Translations under genes and position numbers: made by a program | Part shown: positions 47,178-56,283 of the stretch, piece after piece | How positions within the stretch are numbered: position 1 is the first letter of the stretch | Layout of the letters: the number at the start of each line of letters is the position of its first letter | Origin: Bacteroidaceae bacterium | Lineage (GTDB): Bacteria; Bacteroidota; Bacteroidia; Bacteroidales; Bacteroidaceae | Reading direction: 5' to 3' | Length of the DNA: 64,000 bases | Assembly (NCBI GenBank): GCA_902362375.1 | Contig: CABIVS010000003.1 | Span: 538,060 to 602,059, forward strand | Notes under the pieces: generated by a model | Told to the model about the DNA's origin: nothing | Databases searched by the model: none | What the model saw: only the letters and a program-made list of their open reading frames with translations

Positions 47178-48017
47178 ATGGAAAATTTCGTAAGAAATAG
47201 TAAGCTGAACATAGAAGAAGAAATAAAAAGGATCGAGCTACAGTCGGTTGATCCTTTGGATAGAATCAGGCAGATCATTGGTGTCCTACAGGTTTCACTG
47301 ACTTCGCTGAAAACAGCAGTTGCCGGATATCAGTTTCGAAGTGCTGAAGAAGAGATTCTTTTCTTTAAAGTATCGAAACCGCAGATTTCCGGTCTGTTGA
47401 TGTTTTATGTCCGTTTGTATCAGATTGAAAAGAATCGTATCGGCAAATCTCTGTCCTCCCAATGCAGATATCTGAAGATTGAATTGGAGAACCTGCAAAA
47501 AACATTTTCGAATAATAGCTTTTATGAATATTATCGTGCCGGTCGGACAGAGTTTGATAACCACTATTTTATTCGGGAGAATTATGATATTCTTTCTGAT
47601 ATACATTGTCATCTATTGGATAGAGATACTTCTTTTACCACCTTGCATGATTCGAGTGTTGCAGAAATTCTGGCGAATAATCGTTTGATAGAATATATGT
47701 CGGAGGAAATTGAGCAGCTGACAGAGAAACTTCATCTTAAATTTACTTCCATTGTAGACAGTAAGCTGTTGCAATGGACGGACAGTAAAGTGGCTTTGGT
47801 TGAGTTTATCTACGCTTTGTATGCAGGTAAATGCTTTAATAATGGAAATACGAGTTTGAAAGACATTGCTTTTTGTTGCGAAACACTGTTTAATATCGAG
47901 ATAGGTGACTTTTATCGTATATTCTTGGAAATCAGGAATAGAAAGAAAAGCAGGACCCTATTTCTGGATAAGTTGAAAGAACAGATTATAAAGATGATGG
48001 ATGAGCTTGACAGATAA
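47178..48017 (+). CDS. RteC-family protein
   Basis: A 279-aa protein whose C-terminal half matches RteC, the CTnDOT excision regulator: LLQWTDSKVALVEFIYALYAGKCFNNGNTSLKDIAFCCETLFNIEIGDFYRIFLEIRNRKKSRTLFLDKLKEQII, a winged-helix-like domain. The N-terminal helical region is more divergent. No integrase, excisionase, rteA/rteB or mobilisation gene is nearby, so this is an orphan chromosomal member. The start at 47178 is one of two close ATGs; the other is out of frame. Function beyond DNA binding is unknown. Confidence 0.85.
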   Translation: MENFVRNSKLNIEEEIKRIELQSVDPLDRIRQIIGVLQVSLTSLKTAVAGYQFRSAEEEILFFKVSKPQISGLLMFYVRLYQIEKNRIGKSLSSQCRYLKIELENLQKTFSNNSFYEYYRAGRTEFDNHYFIRENYDILSDIHCHLLDRDTSFTTLHDSSVAEILANNRLIEYMSEEIEQLTEKLHLKFTSIVDSKLLQWTDSKVALVEFIYALYAGKCFNNGNTSLKDIAFCCETLFNIEIGDFYRIFLEIRNRKKSRTLFLDKLKEQIIKMMDELDR

Positions 48018-49732: not shown

Positions 49733-50821
49733 ATGAATAACGAAAATCAAACAATTCACAAATTCGACGTTAATTTAAACTGGTATGGCTGGAATGATAA
49801 ACTAAGCCGACTAAAACAAGAATCACTCTACAGCACTCTTCCTCATGGACGTATATCCATAGTACACCGTACCTGCTACGAGGTCGTTTCCGAAAACGGA
49901 TTGTTGCAGTGTGAACTCACGGGAAACATGATGTATGGGAAATCTGATGCTGAATTACCCTGTACGGGTGATTGGGTGCTTTTTCAACCATTTGATGAGA
50001 ATAAAGGGATTATTGTCGATATACTGCCTCGTGAGCGGACATTGTATCGCAAGAAAAGCGGTACAATTGCCGATAAGCAGGCCATTGCTTCTTACGTCGA
50101 TAAAGCATTTATTGTGCAGAGCCTTGACGATAATTTCAATGTTCGCAGAGTAGAACGTTTTATGGTTCAGGTATTGGAAGAAAATATCAAGCCTGTATTG
50201 GTACTTAATAAATCCGATTTAGATTTTGACAGGCAGAGTGTTGAAGAACAAATAAAGCATATCTCCAATCAGATACCCGTATTTTTTACGAGTATTCATC
50301 AACCCCAAACGATTCTCCGGCTGCGGGAATCCATATCAGAAGGAGAAACTGTTGTATTTGTCGGTTCTTCGGGTGTCGGGAAAAGTTCTCTGGTAAATGC
50401 ACTCTGTGAAAAATCTGTGTTACTTACCACCGATATAAGCCTGTCCACAGGAAAAGGCCGGCATACATCGACCCGTCGGGAAATGGTATTGATGAATGAT
50501 TCGGGTGTTTTAATCGATACTCCGGGTGTGCGTGAATTTGGCTTGGTTATCGACAATCCGGATTCACTGGCCGAAGTACTTGAAATCTCTGACTATGCAG
50601 AATCGTGCCGTTTCAAAGATTGCAAGCATATCAACGAACCGGGTTGTGCTGTTTTAGAAGCAGTCAATAGCGGTGTATTAGACTATAAAGTTTATGCAAG
50701 CTATCTGAAACTTCGCCGGGAAGCGTGGCACTTTTCTGCTTCCGAACATGAGAAACGTAAAAAGGAGAAGTCCTTTACAAAACTTGTAGAAGAAGTAAAG
50801 AATCGTAAGGCAAATCGCTGA
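49733..50821 (+). CDS. rsgA: Ribosome small-subunit-dependent GTPase A
   Basis: About 362 aa from ATG at 49733; the in-frame GTG 13 codons earlier is less likely. It is the circularly permuted GTPase that assists late 30S maturation. An OB-fold occupies the N-terminus. G4 (LNKSDL) precedes G1 (GSSGVGKSSLVNAL) and G3 (DTPGVREFG), as expected for the permuted family. A C-terminal zinc site is CRFKDCKHINEPGCAV. A basic tail (HEKRKKEKSFTK) follows. The next element downstream is the tRNA-like RNA cluster. Confidence 0.95.
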   Translation: MNNENQTIHKFDVNLNWYGWNDKLSRLKQESLYSTLPHGRISIVHRTCYEVVSENGLLQCELTGNMMYGKSDAELPCTGDWVLFQPFDENKGIIVDILPRERTLYRKKSGTIADKQAIASYVDKAFIVQSLDDNFNVRRVERFMVQVLEENIKPVLVLNKSDLDFDRQSVEEQIKHISNQIPVFFTSIHQPQTILRLRESISEGETVVFVGSSGVGKSSLVNALCEKSVLLTTDISLSTGKGRHTSTRREMVLMNDSGVLIDTPGVREFGLVIDNPDSLAEVLEISDYAESCRFKDCKHINEPGCAVLEAVNSGVLDYKVYASYLKLRREAWHFSASEHEKRKKEKSFTKLVEEVKNRKANR

Positions 50822-50885
50822 TTTCTATTTAAACGATGCAGGTATTGGAATTTATTTTTTTCTTCAAAAGAGCAAAAAAGTTTTA

Positions 50886-50924
50886 GCTGCGCAAAAAGGC
50901 TGCGCACCACTGCATCTATCTTTG
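50886..50924 (+). promoter_or_regulatory. Promoter of the small-RNA cluster with a repeat at the -33 position
   Basis: TATCTTTG (50917-50924) is a good -7 box, but no TTTG occurs at -33. That place is taken by GCTGCGCA (50886-50893) repeated 13 bp later (50899-50906). TGCGCA is self-complementary, so the pair is also a dyad. An activator- or repressor-controlled promoter is the inference. Transcription would begin near 50931, just before the first hairpin RNA. Confidence 0.55.
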
Positions 50925-50937
50925 TCGAAGAAACAAG

Positions 50938-51018
50938 AAAACAGGTCAAGTACGGGTTACTTCAACAACTCATTTAAGGTATGGAAATCACTCATACGAT
51001 TATCCGTTTTCCTGTTTC
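50938..51018 (+). ncRNA. Hairpin RNA 'A' with AGGTCAA-N7-TTACTTC motif
   Basis: Hand-folding gives a 7-bp closing stem AAACAGG (50939-50945)/CCTGTTT (51011-51017), an internal loop containing CAA, a second stem ACGGGT (50952-50957)/ATCCGT (51002-51007), and an apical hairpin GTATG (50979-50983)/CATAC (50993-50997). The motif is AGGTCAA at 50943-50949, spacer 50950-50956 and TTACTTC at 50957-50963. No open reading frame of interest lies here. Whether it is a separate RNA or part of one precursor is unknown. Confidence 0.6.
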
Positions 51019-51023
51019 GCAAA

Positions 51024-51143
51024 GGGGCAGTAGCTCAGTGGGTAGAGCATCATCTTTAATCTTGAGATTATCCTGATGAAAAAGGTCAATTAAGATTTAC
51101 TCCTATCCCGTGACCGTCGTCGGTTCGACTCCGACCTGCTCCA
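51024..51143 (+). ncRNA. tRNA-like RNA 'B' with rebuilt anticodon and variable arms
   Basis: Canonical parts: acceptor GGGGCAG (51024-51030)/CTGCTCC (51136-51142), discriminator A51143, D-arm GCTC-AGTGGGTA-GAGC (51033-51048), and T-arm GTCGG-TTCGACT-CCGAC (51119-51135). The anticodon stem TCATC (51050-51054)/GATGA (51075-51079) is in the standard place, but the 7-nt loop is replaced by 20 nt with its own hairpin TAATC-TTGA-GATTA (51057-51070). The variable region is 39 nt, with stem GGTCA (51084-51088)/TGACC (51111-51115), and carries the motif AGGTCAA-N7-TTACTCC (51083-51103). It cannot decode as a normal tRNA. It resembles in principle the tRNA-mimic modules of bacterial Y RNAs. Confidence 0.8.
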
Positions 51144-51157
51144 CAAAAAAATATATA

Positions 51158-51257
51158 GAGGTAGGACAGCAGCTTCGGGATTATCTGAAATGAGGTCAAC
51201 CGGGGCTTACTTCTTAACGGTGGATAACGCTGGTTCGAATCCGGCCTGTTCTACCTC
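51158..51257 (+). ncRNA. tRNA-like RNA 'C' with 12-bp acceptor-type stem
   Basis: GAGGTAGGACAG (51158-51169) pairs along 12 bp with CTGTTCTACCTC (51246-51257), with one G-U pair. A perfect T-arm GCTGG-TTCGAAT-CCGGC (51229-51245) joins it directly. There is no canonical D-arm; instead a TTCGG/CTGAA hairpin (51174-51189) follows, then the motif AGGTCAA-N7-TTACTTC (51193-51213). Its spacer CCG (51200-51202) pairs with CGG (51218-51220). A T-run follows the 3' arm, so it could also end transcription. Confidence 0.75.
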
Positions 51258-51267
51258 TTTTTATCAA

Positions 51268-51339
51268 CTAAGGTCAAGGAAGACTTACTTCAAAACCGCA
51301 GGAATGCTCCATTGATTCACAGTCTTCCGATTACCTTAC
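51268..51339 (+). ncRNA. Hairpin RNA 'D' in the leader of the RING/TerD-like gene
   Basis: Stem 1 is TAAGGT (51269-51274)/ACCTTA (51333-51338). The internal loop is CAA opposite GATT. Stem 2 is GGAAGACT (51278-51285)/AGTCTTCC (51321-51328). The motif AGGTCAA-N7-TTACTTC is at 51271-51291. It ends 17 nt before the ATG at 51356, with no Shine-Dalgarno between, so it is probably also a control element for that mRNA. Confidence 0.65.
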
Positions 51340-51355
51340 TTAAAAAAACAAAGTT

Positions 51356-53602
51356 ATGAATAAAGATTTGTTGAAAGTGTCTATCAGGCAGAATGCAATC
51401 TATTTGCCTTTGATAGAAGGAGAGAAAAAGCAGGAAGAGTTGACTTCGACTACCATTGCATTGGTAGCCCAACTCCGTAAAGTAGGATATAGCTTGTCCG
51501 AAGAACTGCTGCATGCTGTTAATCAGTTATATCCGGCTCAACAGATGATGATTCTTCAGGTGATGAAAGAAGCATTGGGTGTGACGCTAAACTGGGCTCC
51601 ATTGGTGAAAGGGTGGGATGTACCTACCGGAGAAACGCGTTTGGATCATCTGGTTACATGGATCGCTAACCTGTTTAATACCCCCAAAGGCGTTAAACTA
51701 CCTTGCGGACACGTGATCCCTGATAATACATTCCCTATGGAACGATACAATGGTTGTCCGTTCTGCGGAACTCCGTTCCAAACGGCTACTACGGAATACT
51801 TCGGACAGGGAAGTAAACTGAAAGTGCTGGAACTTTGGCAGGACAAGGAGCTGAATGCTTTTTTCTGTGACTTGCTTGAATCGCGTACGGCTCTTGATGT
51901 CACACAAGCAGATAGCTTGAAAATGATGCTTGGCGAACTTCCGTTACCGGCAGTCGGAATCAAAATGAAGGAGACATTGATGTTGGTGATAGATACATTG
52001 GTGGAACAGGATAGAGCGCAGGAAGCGCAAATCTATTTCTCTACTCCGAATGATATATTGCGTTATCTGTGGTATAAGAAAACCGGATTCCTGCAAATCA
52101 TAGAGCCTAAGACTATTATCCGTAAAACAGGTAGAAACAACACACATATATGTGGAGTTTTGGATAAAAGTCGTTCGGCAGCCCAAGCGAAACGTGAGGA
52201 GTTGAAGTTGAAATATACGCGTCGTGAATGTAAAATGGTAGCTCTTTGGTTGAACAACCTGACAATGGCTCCGGAGAAGGCTTGCGAAATCATGCATCCG
52301 AAAAGAGAGATGTGGGTACGTATGATACGTGCGTTGCGTCTGGCGGAATATGCCCGTAAGCCGGAATTCGGAAATTTGAAGGAATTGATGGATATATTCT
52401 ACCGCGAGGCATATACCGTTTGGCAGGGAGAAGTGGAGCGCAACCGTTTGAAGGCGGATGCGGAACAGACATTTGCTTTGTTAAAGCAGCGACCGGGTAT
52501 GTTTGCACGTTCTTTATTTGCGAATATGCTTTGGTTCGGAGCGGAAGAGACGTTGGCTGCATTTAAAGAAGTGGTTCATTTGTTGCCGGCACGTTTGGTC
52601 GTTACTTTGGGTATGTATGCGGAGAGCTACTTTGAACCGGGACGTAAGAGAATGGTGAAACCTTTAGGGGGGAATGCTCTTTTGATAGAACCACACTATT
52701 TGGTGGGGCTGTATATGGAGGATCAGCTAAAAGCGATGGTGAAGGATGTGCAGGATTTGTGTAAGGAAGTCGTAGCTGCCCGTTTCGCCGGTGTAGCTGC
52801 CGGAAGTGAAAACAAAAGTATGTATATTGACCCTATGTTGTTCCATATCCCGTTGTCTATCGGCGATCGTAGCGAAACAATTCAGGATACTTCCTGTGCT
52901 TTGCAGGGAACACGTTTTCCGGTAGAGGGGGATAAAGTGCGGTTGTTTATGCAGTGGGGAAAAGGGCTTCCGGCACAGCATCTTGATATGGACTTGAGTT
53001 GTCATATTGCTTTGCCTTCCACAACAGAAGTTTGTTCTTACTTCAACTTGCAGGCTATTGGTGCTAAACATAGCGGGGATATCCGAAGTATTCCTAATAA
53101 GAAAGGTACTGCCGAATATATCGAGCTGGATTTGAACGAACTGAACCGTGTAGGTGCGGAATATGTTGCTTTCACTTGCAATGCATATAGCAACGGGACT
53201 ATCTCTCCTAATCTGGTGGTAGGTTGGATGAACTCTGCCTATCCAATGAAGATATCGGAAAGAACAGGAGTAGCTTACGATCCTTCTTGCGTGCAACATC
53301 AGGTACGTATTTCCCAAAGTTTGCAGAAAGGACTTGTTTTCGGAGTTCTGAAAGTGAAAGAACGGGAAATCGTTTGGCTGGAAATACCTTTTGGTGGACA
53401 GACGATTCTTTCTTTGGATACACAGACCATCGAAAAGTATCTGGATAAACTGGAAGCGAAAACAACTGTCGGTGAACTGTTGACTGTCAAAGCGCAGGCA
53501 CAGGGATTGAAGTTAGTTGATATTCCGGAAGCGGACGAGATATATACTCGTGAATGGGCATTGAATACTGCCGCTGTGACTAAATTACTGTTAGGTGATT
53601 AA
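51356..53602 (+). CDS. RING-like zinc finger plus TerD-like domain protein (MXAN_6230/SCO0854-like)
   Basis: A 748-aa cytoplasmic protein without signal or membrane segment. A helical N-terminal region (1-110) is followed by a small zinc site, LPCGHVIP...CPFCGTPF (Cys117, His119, Cys134, Cys137), which is half of a RING or a zinc knuckle. A long helical region (about 180-500, with RRECKMVALWLNN and LLKQRPGMFARSLFANMLWFG) resembles HEAT-type repeats. A C-terminal beta-rich TerD-like domain (about 525-725) has MDLSCHIAL, KHSGDIRSIPNKKGTAEYIELDL, FTCNAYSNG, and VGWMNSAYPM. I recognise the overall layout as that of the MXAN_6230/SCO0854 family, of unknown activity. The four small RNAs directly upstream point to RNA binding. 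That link is inference. Confidence 0.75.
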   Translation: MNKDLLKVSIRQNAIYLPLIEGEKKQEELTSTTIALVAQLRKVGYSLSEELLHAVNQLYPAQQMMILQVMKEALGVTLNWAPLVKGWDVPTGETRLDHLVTWIANLFNTPKGVKLPCGHVIPDNTFPMERYNGCPFCGTPFQTATTEYFGQGSKLKVLELWQDKELNAFFCDLLESRTALDVTQADSLKMMLGELPLPAVGIKMKETLMLVIDTLVEQDRAQEAQIYFSTPNDILRYLWYKKTGFLQIIEPKTIIRKTGRNNTHICGVLDKSRSAAQAKREELKLKYTRRECKMVALWLNNLTMAPEKACEIMHPKREMWVRMIRALRLAEYARKPEFGNLKELMDIFYREAYTVWQGEVERNRLKADAEQTFALLKQRPGMFARSLFANMLWFGAEETLAAFKEVVHLLPARLVVTLGMYAESYFEPGRKRMVKPLGGNALLIEPHYLVGLYMEDQLKAMVKDVQDLCKEVVAARFAGVAAGSENKSMYIDPMLFHIPLSIGDRSETIQDTSCALQGTRFPVEGDKVRLFMQWGKGLPAQHLDMDLSCHIALPSTTEVCSYFNLQAIGAKHSGDIRSIPNKKGTAEYIELDLNELNRVGAEYVAFTCNAYSNGTISPNLVVGWMNSAYPMKISERTGVAYDPSCVQHQVRISQSLQKGLVFGVLKVKEREIVWLEIPFGGQTILSLDTQTIEKYLDKLEAKTTVGELLTVKAQAQGLKLVDIPEADEIYTREWALNTAAVTKLLLGD

Positions 53603-53871: not shown

Positions 53872-54492
53872 ATGAGTGCTCAATATGATTTGTATGAAAC
53901 GCCGGATCCTGATAGTACCGGAGAACAAAAGCCTTTGCATGCCCGTATCGTTCCAAATGGAACTTACTCGAAAAAAGAATTCCTGGAACGTGTATCTCGT
54001 TCTTCCCAGACTTTTAACTATAACGTGATAGATGCGGTAGTAGGAGTTGTATTGGATGAACTTGCCGAAACGTTAGCGGAGGGATATATCGTAGAACTTG
54101 GCGAACTCGGGCATTTCAGCATCTCTTTGAAATGTACGCATAAAGTAATGACTAAACGGGAGATTCGTGCCGAATCAATCTGTTTTGATAACGTGCATTT
54201 GCGCACTTCCAAAGAGTTCAAAAGGAAGATTAAACGTGAGATAGAGTTGGAACGTGTGGATAAATCCAGACACTCTTCTCAAAAAGTGGAATTTTCTATG
54301 GAGCAACGCCAGCAGCTTTTACAGGAATTTCTAAAGAAAAATGGTGGTATTACCCGATTGGAATATAGTAGCCTGACCGGACTTTCCCGGCTGAAAGCAA
54401 TAGATGATTTGAATACTTTCATTGAGAAAGGGATTCTTCGTAAACGTGGAGCTGGAAGAACCGTGTTTTATGTCTGGCAACAAGAGCAATAA
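53872..54492 (+). CDS. HU-family DNA-binding protein with C-terminal winged-helix-like extension
   Basis: A 206-aa protein of the long Bacteroides HU type. The HU domain occupies about 25-125 (YSKKEFLERVSRSSQTFNYNVIDAVVGVVLDELAETLAEGYIVELGELGHFSISL, then VHLRTSKEFKRKI). The C-terminal 70 residues (MEQRQQLLQEFLKKNGGITRLEYSSLTGLSRLKAIDDLNTFIEKGILRKRGAGRTVFYVW) look like a winged helix. It binds DNA as nucleoid or local regulatory protein. There is no close operon partner. Confidence 0.88.
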   Translation: MSAQYDLYETPDPDSTGEQKPLHARIVPNGTYSKKEFLERVSRSSQTFNYNVIDAVVGVVLDELAETLAEGYIVELGELGHFSISLKCTHKVMTKREIRAESICFDNVHLRTSKEFKRKIKREIELERVDKSRHSSQKVEFSMEQRQQLLQEFLKKNGGITRLEYSSLTGLSRLKAIDDLNTFIEKGILRKRGAGRTVFYVWQQEQ

Positions 54493-54570
54493 TAATCAAT
54501 TCAAAGATTTCTTCTTGTTATTGCTAACAATTTTGTACCTTTGTTTGTCTATAGAAAAAACAGTAGGATT

Positions 54571-56283
54571 ATGGCAAGAATAACAATTCCTTATGCAGTA
54601 GCAGATTTCATAGAAATGCGTGAACGTGGTTTCTATTACGTAGATAAGACCCAATATATAACTAAGCTTGAAGATTATAAGGCTCCTGTATTTCTGCGTC
54701 CCCGTCGCTTTGGGAAGAGTTTGTTAGTCTCTACTCTAGCTTGCTATTATGACCGTACGAAAGCGCATCGGTTTGACGAACTGTTTGGAGGAACTTGGAT
54801 TGGTAATCATCCGACAAAAGAACATAACCGTTATATGATAATCCGTTATGACTTCTCCGCAATGGTAATGTCAGACCATATTCAAGGGCTGGCACAGAAT
54901 TTTAATGACCTGAATTGCGGTCCGGTAGAAGTAATGGTAGCACATAATCGTGATTTGTTTGGTGATTTTGAATTTAGCAATCGTGGCGATGCATCTAAAA
55001 TGCTGGAAGAAGTGCTTACTTACGCCCGCTCTCACGAACTGCCTAAAGTTTATATTTTGATTGATGAATATGATAATTTCACCAATCAATTACTTACTGC
55101 CTATAATGACCCACTCTATGAAGAAGTTACTACTAATGACAGCTTTCTGCGTACTTTTTTTAAAGTAATTAAAAAAGGTATTGGTGAGGGGAGTATCCGT
55201 ACTTGTTTTTGTACAGGTGTGCTGCCCGTCACTATGGATGATTTGACCAGTGGATATAATATTGCAGAGATATTGACTCTTGAGCCTAATTTCCTGAATA
55301 TGCTTGGGTTTACATACGAAGAAACAGAAACATATCTACGTTATGTACTGGATAAATACTCTACGGGACAGGAGCGTTTTGACGAAATCTGGCAACTAAT
55401 TGTAAGCAACTACGATGGCTACCGTTTCCGTCCCAATGGAGATCGGTTATTCAATGCCACTATCCTTACTTACTTCTTCAAGAAATTTGCAGCCAATGCC
55501 GGCAGTATTCCGGACGAGTTGGTAGATGAAAATCTACGTACTGACATTCATTGGATTCGTCGGTTGACTCTTTCGCTGGATAATGCGAAAGCGATGTTGG
55601 ATGCATTGGTAATTGACGATGAACTGCCTTATAATGTGGCTGACCTTGCCAGTAAGTTTAATAAGAAAAAGTTTTTTGATAAAGAGTTTTATCCCATTAG
55701 TTTGTTTTATTTGGGAATGACAACGTTGAGGGATAAATTTGTGACAACATTGCCCAATATGACGATGCGTAGTGTATACATGGACTACTATAATCAACTG
55801 AACAAAATAGAAGGTAATGCACAACGTTATGTCCCTGTGTATCGGCACTATGATTCCAATCGAAGCCTGGAACCACTCGTTCAGAATTATTTCGAACAAT
55901 ATTTGGGACAATTTCCAGCACAAGTTTTTGATAAGATCAATGAAAACTTTATCCGGTGTTCTTTCTACGAACTGGTGTCACGTTATTTAAGTAGTTGTTA
56001 TACCTTTGCCATCGAACAGAATAATTCAGTAGGCCGATCAGACTTTGAAATGACCGGTATTCCCGGTACGGATTACTATATGGATGATCGTGTGGTCGAA
56101 TTTAAATACTATCGTATGAAGGAAGCTGAAAAGATGCTTGCACTTTCCGAGCCTCTTCCCGAGCATGTGGAACAGGTGAAAAGATACGGTGAAGACACTA
56201 AGAAAAAGTTTCCCAATTATAATGTGCGGACATATGTGGTGTACATTTGTGCTAATAAGGGATGGAAATGTTGGGAAGTATGA
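54571..56283 (+). CDS. AAA-ATPase-like / PD-(D/E)XK nuclease-like protein
   Basis: About 570 aa from ATG at 54571; the upstream TTG overlaps a TACCTTTG promoter box (54536-54543). The N-terminal AAA-ATPase_like domain has YVDKTQYITKLEDYKAPVFLRPRRFGKSLLVSTLACYY with the Walker A variant RRFGKSLL, and Walker B-like VYILIDEYDNF. The C-terminal part has a PDDEXK_9-type nuclease core: RSDFEMTGIPGTDYYMDDRVVEFKYYR. This family is strongly expanded in Bacteroides and its role is unproven; a link to mobile or defence functions has been suspected. Confidence 0.9.
   Translation: MARITIPYAVADFIEMRERGFYYVDKTQYITKLEDYKAPVFLRPRRFGKSLLVSTLACYYDRTKAHRFDELFGGTWIGNHPTKEHNRYMIIRYDFSAMVMSDHIQGLAQNFNDLNCGPVEVMVAHNRDLFGDFEFSNRGDASKMLEEVLTYARSHELPKVYILIDEYDNFTNQLLTAYNDPLYEEVTTNDSFLRTFFKVIKKGIGEGSIRTCFCTGVLPVTMDDLTSGYNIAEILTLEPNFLNMLGFTYEETETYLRYVLDKYSTGQERFDEIWQLIVSNYDGYRFRPNGDRLFNATILTYFFKKFAANAGSIPDELVDENLRTDIHWIRRLTLSLDNAKAMLDALVIDDELPYNVADLASKFNKKKFFDKEFYPISLFYLGMTTLRDKFVTTLPNMTMRSVYMDYYNQLNKIEGNAQRYVPVYRHYDSNRSLEPLVQNYFEQYLGQFPAQVFDKINENFIRCSFYELVSRYLSSCYTFAIEQNNSVGRSDFEMTGIPGTDYYMDDRVVEFKYYRMKEAEKMLALSEPLPEHVEQVKRYGEDTKKKFPNYNVRTYVVYICANKGWKCWEV

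What the first reader, a model, noticed from the sequence alone, without database searches (positions are those of the whole stretch)
50938..51339. Four-copy motif AGGTCAA-N7-TTACTTC: a family of small RNAs in one intergenic region
Seen directly: the motif occurs at 50943, 51083, 51193 and 51271, each time 7+7+7 nt. The outer sevens are invariant except one base in copy B, while the inner seven differ completely. In copies A, C and D the variable seven (or part of it) pairs with a strand further down, and AGGT forms an outer helix in A and D with CAA left in an internal loop. Constant loops plus covarying helices suggest selection on an RNA structure with a shared binder. The layout (closing helix, GGUC, conserved internal loop, upper helix) recalls Y RNAs, but the sequence is different. 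The Y-RNA comparison is inference.
Basis: partly seen in the sequence, partly recalled or inferred. Interest (0 to 1): 0.93.

Follow-up and report, generated by a model that had tools for sequence, protein, structure and literature searches.

The report
Y-RNA-like RNAs without a Ro partner
Next to a gene for a RING- and TerD-domain protein, a Bacteroides-type genome carries four copies of one conserved RNA fold, two of them built into tRNA-like shapes, which likely become small RNAs that this protein binds as part of an RNA-repair system resembling the Ro/Y-RNA particle.

Summary
The motif is real and belongs to a conserved RNA family. The module is GGU-CAA-[helix s2]-UUACUUC pairing with s2'-N-AUU-ACC. 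Of 92 non-redundant upstreams of orthologues of the 51356 gene across Bacteroidota, 89 hold a supported copy, with strong covariation. Copies A and D are hairpins. In B and C the module runs in the opposite order inside a tRNA-like RNA, in place of the anticodon arm: a circular permutant of the bacterial Y RNA YrlA. Y-RNA-like RNAs beside Ro genes of Bacteroidota, and the Rfam D. radiodurans Y RNA, carry UUACUUC after the matching helix, and Ro genes share the operator palindrome. The partner gene is not TROVE but a RING/helical/TerD protein, linked to RtcB mainly in Flavobacterium and to rtcR in Variovorax. A related module lies beside distant homologues in Vibrio, Deinococcus and Streptomyces and passed a test on further loci, mostly of the same genera. 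Transcription and protein binding are untested. It works like a Y-RNA system but is not a Ro Y RNA: a new variant with a different partner.

The parts
50888..50906 (+). Palindromic operator TGCGCA-N7-TGCGCA, predicted binding site of a WYL-domain regulator
   Evidence: Only match in the window, one mismatch allowed; TRCGCA-N7-TGCGYA occurs at one place per genome in G001, G010 and G013, each time at this promoter; same palindrome in 11 of 14 Ro loci. The link to WYL is inference.
50917..50924 (+). TATCTTTG, fits the Bacteroidetes-type TAnnTTTG -7 promoter element (consensus recalled)
   Evidence: Read; a TTTG follows within 30 nt of 94 of 96 palindromes, the full TAnnTTTG in 33 of 96; the first RNA motif lies about 32-38 or 57-79 nt after most palindromes.
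50938..51014 (+). RNA A: hairpin module (GGU 50944-50946, CAA 50947-50949, s2 50950-50956, UUACUUC 50957-50963, s2' 50991-50997, AUU 50999-51001)
   Evidence: 6 of 7 s2 pairs; A-type copies recur across loci. Weak point: the single-sequence MFE does not show this helix, z -1.04.
51024..51143 (+). RNA B: tRNA-like RNA with acceptor, D and T arms and the module in place of the anticodon arm (s2' 51059-51065, AUU 51067-51069, AGGU 51083-51086, CAA 51087-51089, s2 51090-51096, UUACUCC 51097-51103)
   Evidence: Rfam RF00005 49.8 bits, gathering 29; 10-locus alignment, 97.8% of cells paired, 0 of 500 shuffles as high.
51158..51257 (+). RNA C: tRNA-like without D arm: 12-bp acceptor-like stem, T arm, and module (s2' 51172-51178, AUU 51180-51182, GGU 51194-51196, CAA 51197-51199, s2 51200-51206, UUACUUC 51207-51213)
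   Evidence: MFE fold shows this, z -3.75; Rfam tRNA only 19.2 bits, below gathering.
51264..51343 (+). RNA D: hairpin module nearest the gene (UAAGGU 51269-51274, CAA 51275-51277, s2 51278-51284, UUACUUC 51285-51291, s2' 51322-51328, AUU 51330-51332, ACCUUA 51333-51338)
   Evidence: MFE fold as modelled, z -4.51; 27-locus alignment, covariation 0.659 against 0.191 shuffled.
51356..53602 (+). 748-aa protein: N-terminal part, RING-like zinc site (C117, H119, C134, C137), helical middle, TerD domain (about residues 511-700): the predicted RNA partner

Best explanation
The four motif copies are copies of one conserved RNA module that likely yield Y-RNA-like small RNAs, each predicted to be bound through that module by the RING/helical/TerD protein encoded next to them, which would form an RNA-repair particle that works like the Ro/Y-RNA particle but without Ro. 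Shown: the module (outer stem GGU/ACC, internal loop CAA/NAUU, 7-bp covarying helix s2, then UUACUUC); its conservation beside the gene across Bacteroidota; two topologies, hairpins (A, D) and a tRNA body whose anticodon arm is replaced by the module (B, and C without D arm). Inferred: transcription starts just 3' of the palindrome under a WYL-domain regulator; tRNA-processing enzymes cut B and C, and so the whole precursor, apart; the protein reads GGU-CAA/AUU-ACC plus UUACUUC; the tRNA bodies of B and C serve as tRNA mimics that bring in tRNA-handling enzymes or shield the protein's RNA site until damaged RNA arrives; RtcB or other ligases then act.
For: Conservation: 89 of 92 non-redundant upstreams have at least one supported module, 177 hairpin-order and 58 reversed copies. 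Pairing: 219 of 265 strict hits have a partner with 6-7 of 7 pairs at the fixed position before N-ATTA, against about 75 when s2 is dealt among copies; 65 different s2 among the 219. Covariation score of D copies and tRNA-type copies: 0 of 500 shuffles as high; slid controls far lower. Reversed copies sit in tRNA-like RNAs: T-loop within 110 nt downstream of 57 of 58 reversed but 11 of 177 hairpin-order copies. Y-RNA link: UUaCuuC in Rfam RF01053 and (T/A)TACTTC in RNAs beside Ro genes. Shared regulation: palindrome in 11 of 14 Ro loci. Repair context, of 93 loci: a WYL gene cluster upstream in 43, RtcB in 31 (direct comparison; 33 by clustering), RlaP cluster 9, T4-type RNA ligase 8, PNKP 4, Hen1 4 (one representative of each cluster identified by Pfam). 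In Bacteroides, RtcB in 3 of 3 gene-bearing against 1 of 5 other genomes and a 72-73% WYL orthologue in 3 of 3 against 0 of 12. Variovorax homologue on the opposite strand from rtcR with three small genes between and a sigma-54-like TGGCACG-N4-TTGCA site upstream (read; consensus recalled). Similar architecture beside distant homologues: 9 found, 0.17 expected, in six further loci.
Against: No transcript, binding or phenotype data. RNA A's helix is not in its MFE fold, and B's MFE keeps the tRNA arms but not the module arm. On the D alignment one measure is not above chance: pairs with a change on both sides, 9 against 7.9 shuffled, 110 of 500 as high. Protein and TROVE profiles show no similarity, so the Ro-like function rests on context and on the RNA. 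In the window no repair gene was found beside the locus; RtcB and WYL are absent from it by tblastn. The Bacteroides comparisons use only 3 gene-bearing genomes and comparison genomes that I picked; one WYL orthologue (G013) has an internal TGA. In Variovorax two TTCCTTC elements do not pass the module scan. 3 of 92 loci (L004, L060, L090) gave no supported module, though L090 has one motif and L004 a look-alike by eye.
Confidence: 0.72

Rival explanations
1. The elements are cis-acting leader structures of the 51356 mRNA: four tandem regulatory hairpins, two tRNA-like, that the protein binds to control its own expression.
For: In a scan of both strands from 1500 nt upstream to 3500 nt downstream the pattern lies almost only upstream of the gene and on its strand; own-leader autoregulation would need the same module.
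Against: In both Vibrio loci the modules lie downstream of the gene; loci hold 1 to 5 supported copies with different distal domains; B and C have tRNA acceptor and T arms suited to release from a transcript; bacterial Y RNAs, the closest relatives, are separate RNAs (PMC8394870, passages).
Confidence: 0.13
2. The tRNA-like RNAs are decoys for anticodon nucleases: tRNA bodies without an anticodon that titrate or inhibit a tRNA-cutting toxin, with the protein as a carrier.
For: tRNA body kept with the anticodon arm replaced; RNA-repair genes nearby in many loci; a competitive-inhibitor role was proposed for YrlA in PMC7790460 (passages).
Against: Does not explain the hairpin-order copies (177 of 235) nor the 37 loci whose supported copies are all of that kind (89 with a module, 52 with a reversed copy).
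Confidence: 0.08
3. They are ordinary Ro-type Y RNAs that serve a Ro60/TROVE protein encoded elsewhere, and the neighbouring gene is incidental.
For: Shared UUACUUC element and palindrome with Ro loci.
Against: No TROVE match in the four gene-bearing relatives G001, G010, G013, G014; the two lower signatures do not mix: 306 CAA-type and 0 Ro-type sites in the 92 upstreams, 33 Ro-type and 0 CAA-type in the Ro loci; a like module stays beside this protein family in other phyla.
Confidence: 0.04
4. Degenerate tRNA genes and chance repeats, without function.
For: ARAGORN calls no tRNA here and C is below Rfam's gathering score.
Against: Changes on both sides in 16 of 27 pairs of B across 10 loci, 8.4 in shuffles; covariation score of D 0.659 against 0.191.
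Confidence: 0.02

Closest known systems
Bacterial Y RNAs / YrlA with Rsr (Ro60), rsr-yrlBA-rtcBA RNA-repair operon
   Same: Stem, internal loop, helix, UUACUUC; a tRNA-like domain with the module where the anticodon arm would be; several RNAs per locus beside a partner gene; link to RtcB and to damage-controlled regulation; palindrome shared with Ro loci of Bacteroidota.
   Different: Partner is a RING/helical/TerD protein, not TROVE; lower signature CAA/NAUU instead of GYYGUA; in B and C the chain ends are at the tRNA acceptor stem instead of the Y stem, a circular permutation of YrlA's order (T arm, closed acceptor hairpin, D arm); no Rfam Y-RNA model hit in the window.
MXAN_6230/SCO0854 family RING domain protein (NCBIfam NF041916)
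   Same: Homologous, two matched stretches, best 353-682; a like RNA module beside Streptomyces and Kitasatospora members.
   Different: 139.7 bits against a cut-off of 600, so outside the curated family; I saw no function or RNA partner for it.
tRNA
   Same: RNA B: acceptor, D and T arms, Rfam tRNA at 49.8 bits.
   Different: No anticodon arm; the module occupies its place; ARAGORN does not call it.
Scaffold proteins with cognate tRNA-like RNA in RNA-repair systems (Burroughs and Aravind 2016, recalled; not held)
   Same: A protein scaffold with a cognate ncRNA beside RNA ligases; recalled from its abstract: Rot/TROVE and SPFH/Band-7 modules with Y RNAs and a novel tRNA-like molecule.
   Different: As recalled, that tRNA-like RNA goes with SPFH/Band-7, not RING-TerD; could not be checked.

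Membership tests
Bacterial Ro Y RNA / YrlA | Partner gene encodes a TROVE (Ro60/Rsr) protein | tested here: not met
   No TROVE in the 51356 protein by Pfam; profile comparison with 14 TROVE proteins, probability 0.3%. A fold-level relation of the helical part was not resolved.
Bacterial Ro Y RNA / YrlA | Ro-type lower signature (GYYGUA before the upper helix, as read in RNAs beside Ro genes) | tested here: not met
   Ro-type pattern 0 in the 92 upstreams, 33 in 13 of 14 Ro loci; CAA-type pattern 306 in 90 of 92 upstreams, 0 in Ro loci. Without fixing the loop in the pattern, 281 of 305 (T/A)TACTTC sites in the upstreams have CAA at the expected place.
Bacterial Ro Y RNA / YrlA | UUACUUC-like element directly after the upper helix | tested here: met
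   TTACTTC in 271 of 307 pattern hits (the pattern itself fixed [TA]TAC); UUaCuuC in the RF01053 consensus. That this element defines Y RNAs is my reading, not a published criterion that I could check.
Bacterial Ro Y RNA / YrlA | At least one RNA of the locus has a tRNA-like domain | tested here: met
   RNA B Rfam tRNA hit; 52 of 92 loci have a reversed copy.
Bacterial Ro Y RNA / YrlA | Scores above Rfam's threshold for a Y RNA family | tested here: not met
   No Y RNA, YrlA or Deinococcus Y RNA hit in the window at gathering score, nor at E up to 5 in 50800-51400 (three lower-scoring overlapping hits of the tRNA clan were left out there).
Bacterial Ro Y RNA / YrlA | Bound by the partner protein in a stable RNP | not testable with these tools
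   -
tRNA | Cloverleaf with anticodon arm | tested here: not met
   Acceptor, D and T arms present in all 10 aligned copies, anticodon arm replaced by the module.
NCBIfam RING_SCO0854 | Score at or above 600 bits | tested here: not met
   139.7 bits, E 1e-40: a relative, outside the curated cut-off.
TerD fold | C-terminal TerD domain | tested here: met
Rtc RNA-repair operon | RNA ligase gene in the same locus | tested here: not met
   RtcB not in the window by tblastn, though it adjoins the gene in 31 of 93 loci and is present elsewhere in 3 of 3 gene-bearing Bacteroides genomes.

The most novel reading that the evidence does not exclude
Y-type RNAs are not a Ro-only invention. A second, ancient and widespread RNP class exists in which RING/helical/TerD proteins carry their own Y-like RNAs, in Bacteroidota, Pseudomonadota, Actinomycetota and Deinococcota, and evolution has used both circular permutations of the same tRNA-with-a-protein-binding-arm molecule: ends at the arm with Ro, ends at the tRNA acceptor with the RING-TerD protein.
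Probability: 0.6. Interest if true: 0.92.

Novelty: new variant of a known kind. Interest (0 to 1): 0.87.

Why it matters
Y RNAs are studied as Ro60 partners, in bacteria and in human autoimmunity. If a different protein family runs on the same kind of RNA, comparing the two shows which parts of a Y RNA are for Ro and which are general, and gives a likely role to a widespread uncharacterised RING-TerD family, with predicted RNA partner, regulator and repair enzymes to test at once. The tRNA-type copies are a natural circular permutation of YrlA, a ready experiment on tRNA mimicry.

Tried and rejected

Search by RF02553 (YrlA) in relatives gave only sub-threshold hits in 32 of 61 genomes, none of those listed at this locus, and also in E. 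coli and B. subtilis controls, so it discriminates nothing. A pattern-based scan of IMG/VR found 11 stretches, none a relative; three phages hold partial homologues.

Mutual exclusion of TROVE and RING-TerD: with NF041916, one search shows 8 of 296 genomes with long matches; TROVE is in 23 of 292; one (G689) has both. About 0.6 shared would be expected by chance, and NF041916 misses some members that one search found (such as G285 and G348), so no exclusion is claimed.

Palindrome counts with the loose pattern (62 of 93 upstreams) have no clean control: the downstream stretches (30 hits in 107 kb) hold other promoters that may belong to the same regulon. The genome-wide count is better evidence; there Flavobacterium-type genomes have 2-5 places each, not all at this gene.

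That UUACUUC follows s2 in the 28 distinct copies beside Ro genes, and that the lower loop reads GYYGT or CAA, is partly by construction, because the patterns asked for it. The independent support is the RF01053 consensus and the cross-counts. Partner strands for 26 of 28 copies have no shuffle control. Rfam sub-threshold Y-RNA hits were in 12 of the 14 Ro loci.

The scan was designed after seeing those loci (5 found, 0.2 expected; Variovorax 0 of 2 elements, phage L112 none). One search ran it unchanged on six other loci: 9 modules in 5 of 6 loci, 0.17 expected, 0 of 500 shuffles as high, 0 on the reverse strand. These loci are of the same genera (Streptomyces, Vibrio, Deinococcus) plus Kitasatospora, so they are held out but related; the Vibrio stretch is 94% identical to the first one, leaving 7 modules in 4 loci; S. 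halstedii (L167) has the element but no full module.

In one search the scan found supported modules in 21 of the 23 loci given, but one of these, L053, is a duplicate that has the strict motif.

Papers seen as passages: PMC7790460, PMC7824862, PMC8394870, PMC4012209, PMC7159879; others as search listings only. Not held: Chen 2014, Sim and Wolin 2018, Sim 2020, Burroughs 2011 and 2016. No paper joining this protein family to an RNA was found in the listings, which cover open-licence papers only.

Full report
OBSERVATION. In 61 relatives the exact pattern GGTCAA-N7-TTACTTC occurs in several copies only in three genomes that hold the neighbouring gene (4, 4 and 3 copies in G001, G013 and G010), each time just upstream of it; elsewhere it occurs singly in four genomes, fewer than the reversed control pattern.

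ORTHOLOGUES. The 748-aa protein at 51356-53602 is patchily distributed: 4 of 61 relatives, 7 of 396 genomes of the class. One scan of named genomes found 157 relatives and kept 80 loci, from Bacteroides, Dysgonomonas, Odoribacter, Prevotellaceae, Flavobacterium, Chryseobacterium, Aquimarina, Chitinophaga, Emticicia and others. Most of their upstream regions hold the same motif.

THE MODULE. Reading the upstreams and scoring them gives one module: outer stem ending in GGU (5') and ACC (3'), internal loop CAA against N-AUU, a 7-bp helix s2/s2', and UUACUUC straight after s2. Of 265 strict hits in 70 of 92 loci, 219 have a partner with 6 or 7 of 7 pairs at the fixed place before N-ATTA; dealing the s2 strings among copies gives about 75. 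The 219 have 65 different s2 sequences. Most remaining loci, mainly Prevotella and kin, use variants with GGA/TCC or GGC/GCC outer stems and CCA/CTA loops. With a combined pattern 89 of 92 loci have at least one supported module (misses L004, L060, L090). With the loop left open, 281 of the 305 (T/A)TACTTC sites in these upstreams have CAA just before a 7-nt s2.

COVARIATION. For the copy nearest the gene (D; 27 loci that I chose from 56 to limit near-duplicates) 92.3% of cells pair and the covariation score is 0.659 against 0.191 in shuffles, none of 500 as high; slides by 1-3 columns give 0.10-0.22. One of the five measures is not above chance: pairs with changes on both sides, 9 against 7.9, 110 of 500 as high. 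For the tRNA-type copy (10 loci that I chose) 97.8% of cells pair, 16 of 27 pairs have changes on both sides (8.4 in shuffles), covariation 0.568 against 0.230, none of 500 as high; further pair types are reached by 3 of 500. In that set all seven s2 pairs, five of seven acceptor pairs and three of five T-arm pairs have changes on both sides; the four D-arm pairs never vary.

TOPOLOGY. A and D run GGU-CAA-s2-UUACUUC-loop-s2'-NAUU-ACC. B and C run s2'-NAUU-AUC-loop-GGU-CAA-s2-UUACUUC, inside a tRNA body. B is an Rfam tRNA (49.8 bits) with acceptor, D and T arms, and the module stands where the anticodon arm would be; C has acceptor-like and T arms only. Of 58 reversed copies 57 have a T-loop within 110 nt downstream; of 177 hairpin-order copies 11 do. 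In YrlA the order along the chain is Y stem, T arm, closed acceptor hairpin, D arm, Y stem (Rfam alignment): the same body with the ends moved. B is therefore a circular permutant of YrlA with its ends at the acceptor. Folding single sequences supports C (z -3.75) and D (z -4.51), B as to its tRNA arms (z -2.89), and not A (z -1.04).

LINK TO Y RNAS. TROVE genes were found in 23 of 292 Bacteroidota genomes; 14 loci were read. Beside 12 of the 14 lie sub-threshold YrlA or Deinococcus Y RNA hits. RNAs of the form GUGYYGU(A)-s2(8)-(U/A)UACUUCG stand in 13 of 14; 26 of 28 distinct copies have a downstream partner of 7 or 8 of 8 (without shuffle control). The Rfam Deinococcus Y RNA consensus has UUaCuuC at the same place. 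The two lower signatures do not mix: in 92 upstreams of the RING-TerD gene 306 CAA-type and no Ro-type sites; in the Ro loci 33 Ro-type and no CAA-type sites. In 11 of 14 Ro loci the palindrome TGCGCA-N7-TGCGCA (or its TACGCA form) occurs, in 10 just upstream of the Ro gene. The same palindrome stands at the promoter here (50888-50906), once in the window and at one place in each of three Bacteroides genomes. The two systems thus share an RNA element and an operator, but the lower RNA signature and the protein differ.

CONTEXT. Among 93 loci, some near-duplicates, clustered flanking genes include a WYL+WCX regulator (43 loci, nearly all on the opposite strand upstream), RtcB (33 by clustering, 31 by direct comparison, nearly all Flavobacterium), RlaP (9), T4-type RNA ligase (8), PNKP (4) and Hen1 (4); one representative of each cluster was identified by Pfam. 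In the Bacteroides genomes searched the WYL and RtcB genes are elsewhere, though in one Bacteroides locus (L007) a WYL gene is adjacent: the WYL orthologue is present at 72-73% identity in 3 of 3 gene-bearing genomes and in 0 of 12 others picked by me (best other 31%; one of the three has an internal TGA), and RtcB in 3 of 3 against 1 of 5. In Variovorax the homologue lies on the opposite strand from rtcR, with three small genes between, and a sigma-54-type TGGCACG-N4-TTGCA site (consensus recalled) precedes it; in Salmonella RtcR controls rsr-yrlBA-rtcBA in response to tRNA fragments (PMC7790460, passages). Vibrio homologues lie about 3 kb from an RNA ligase gene.

BEYOND BACTEROIDOTA. Next to distant homologues on plasmids stand hairpins of the same architecture with (U/A)U(A/C)CUUC after the upper helix: Vibrio two, Deinococcus two, Streptomyces one. 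The scan was fixed on these and then run unchanged on six further loci, of the same genera plus Kitasatospora: 9 modules in 5 of 6 loci against 0.17 expected, none on the reverse strand; two of the nine are in a 94% identical Vibrio stretch. Variovorax has two TTCCTTC elements downstream of the gene that fail the scan, and the phage locus has none.

MECHANISM. Most likely the operon is switched on by a WYL regulator at the palindrome when RNA is damaged; the precursor is cut apart at the tRNA-like RNAs; the protein binds each RNA by the shared module; tRNA-like bodies recruit tRNA-handling enzymes or occupy the protein's RNA site; ligases such as RtcB finish the repair. The module, its conservation, its position and its genomic company are shown; every step of the action is inferred.

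NOVELTY. No Rfam family covers the module in the window, and no paper joining this protein family to an RNA turned up in the searched open-licence library; the most relevant papers are not held. It works like a Y-RNA system but fails the Ro-partner and signature tests, so I file it as a new variant.

Noticed in passing
L032:3071-4317: Aquimarina locus has 11 predicted tRNA genes directly upstream of the RNAs; L088 has three. May be tRNA replacement beside a repair system.
   Followed up: no
L107:8447-9481: Variovorax: two repeats with TTCCTTC after a GC-rich arm downstream of the RING-TerD gene, in the rtcR locus; they fold as stacked hairpins but fail the module scan.
   Followed up: partly
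L112:5944-8478: Salicola phage SCTP-2 gene 244 matches residues 12-159 of the protein (26% identity); Ruegeria and Rhodobacter phages match the TerD part.
   Followed up: no
window 54541-56283 and 53872-54492: Downstream of the system: an AAA-ATPase_like plus PDDEXK_9 protein and an HU-HIG protein; the HU-HIG gene is also beside the gene in L001, L002 and L006.
   Followed up: no
window 47178-48017: RteC-type protein (PF09357, E 3.7e-73), usually tied to Bacteroides mobile elements (recalled), a few kb upstream of the locus.
   Followed up: no
L033, L050, L056, L085: Some Flavobacterium-type loci carry six or seven motif copies, apparently from a duplicated segment; the palindrome is also repeated in L085.
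   Followed up: no
L109, L167 and L171 flanks: VWA-domain genes, with an AAA/MoxR ATPase or an RNB ribonuclease, lie near Streptomyces and Deinococcus homologues.
   Followed up: no
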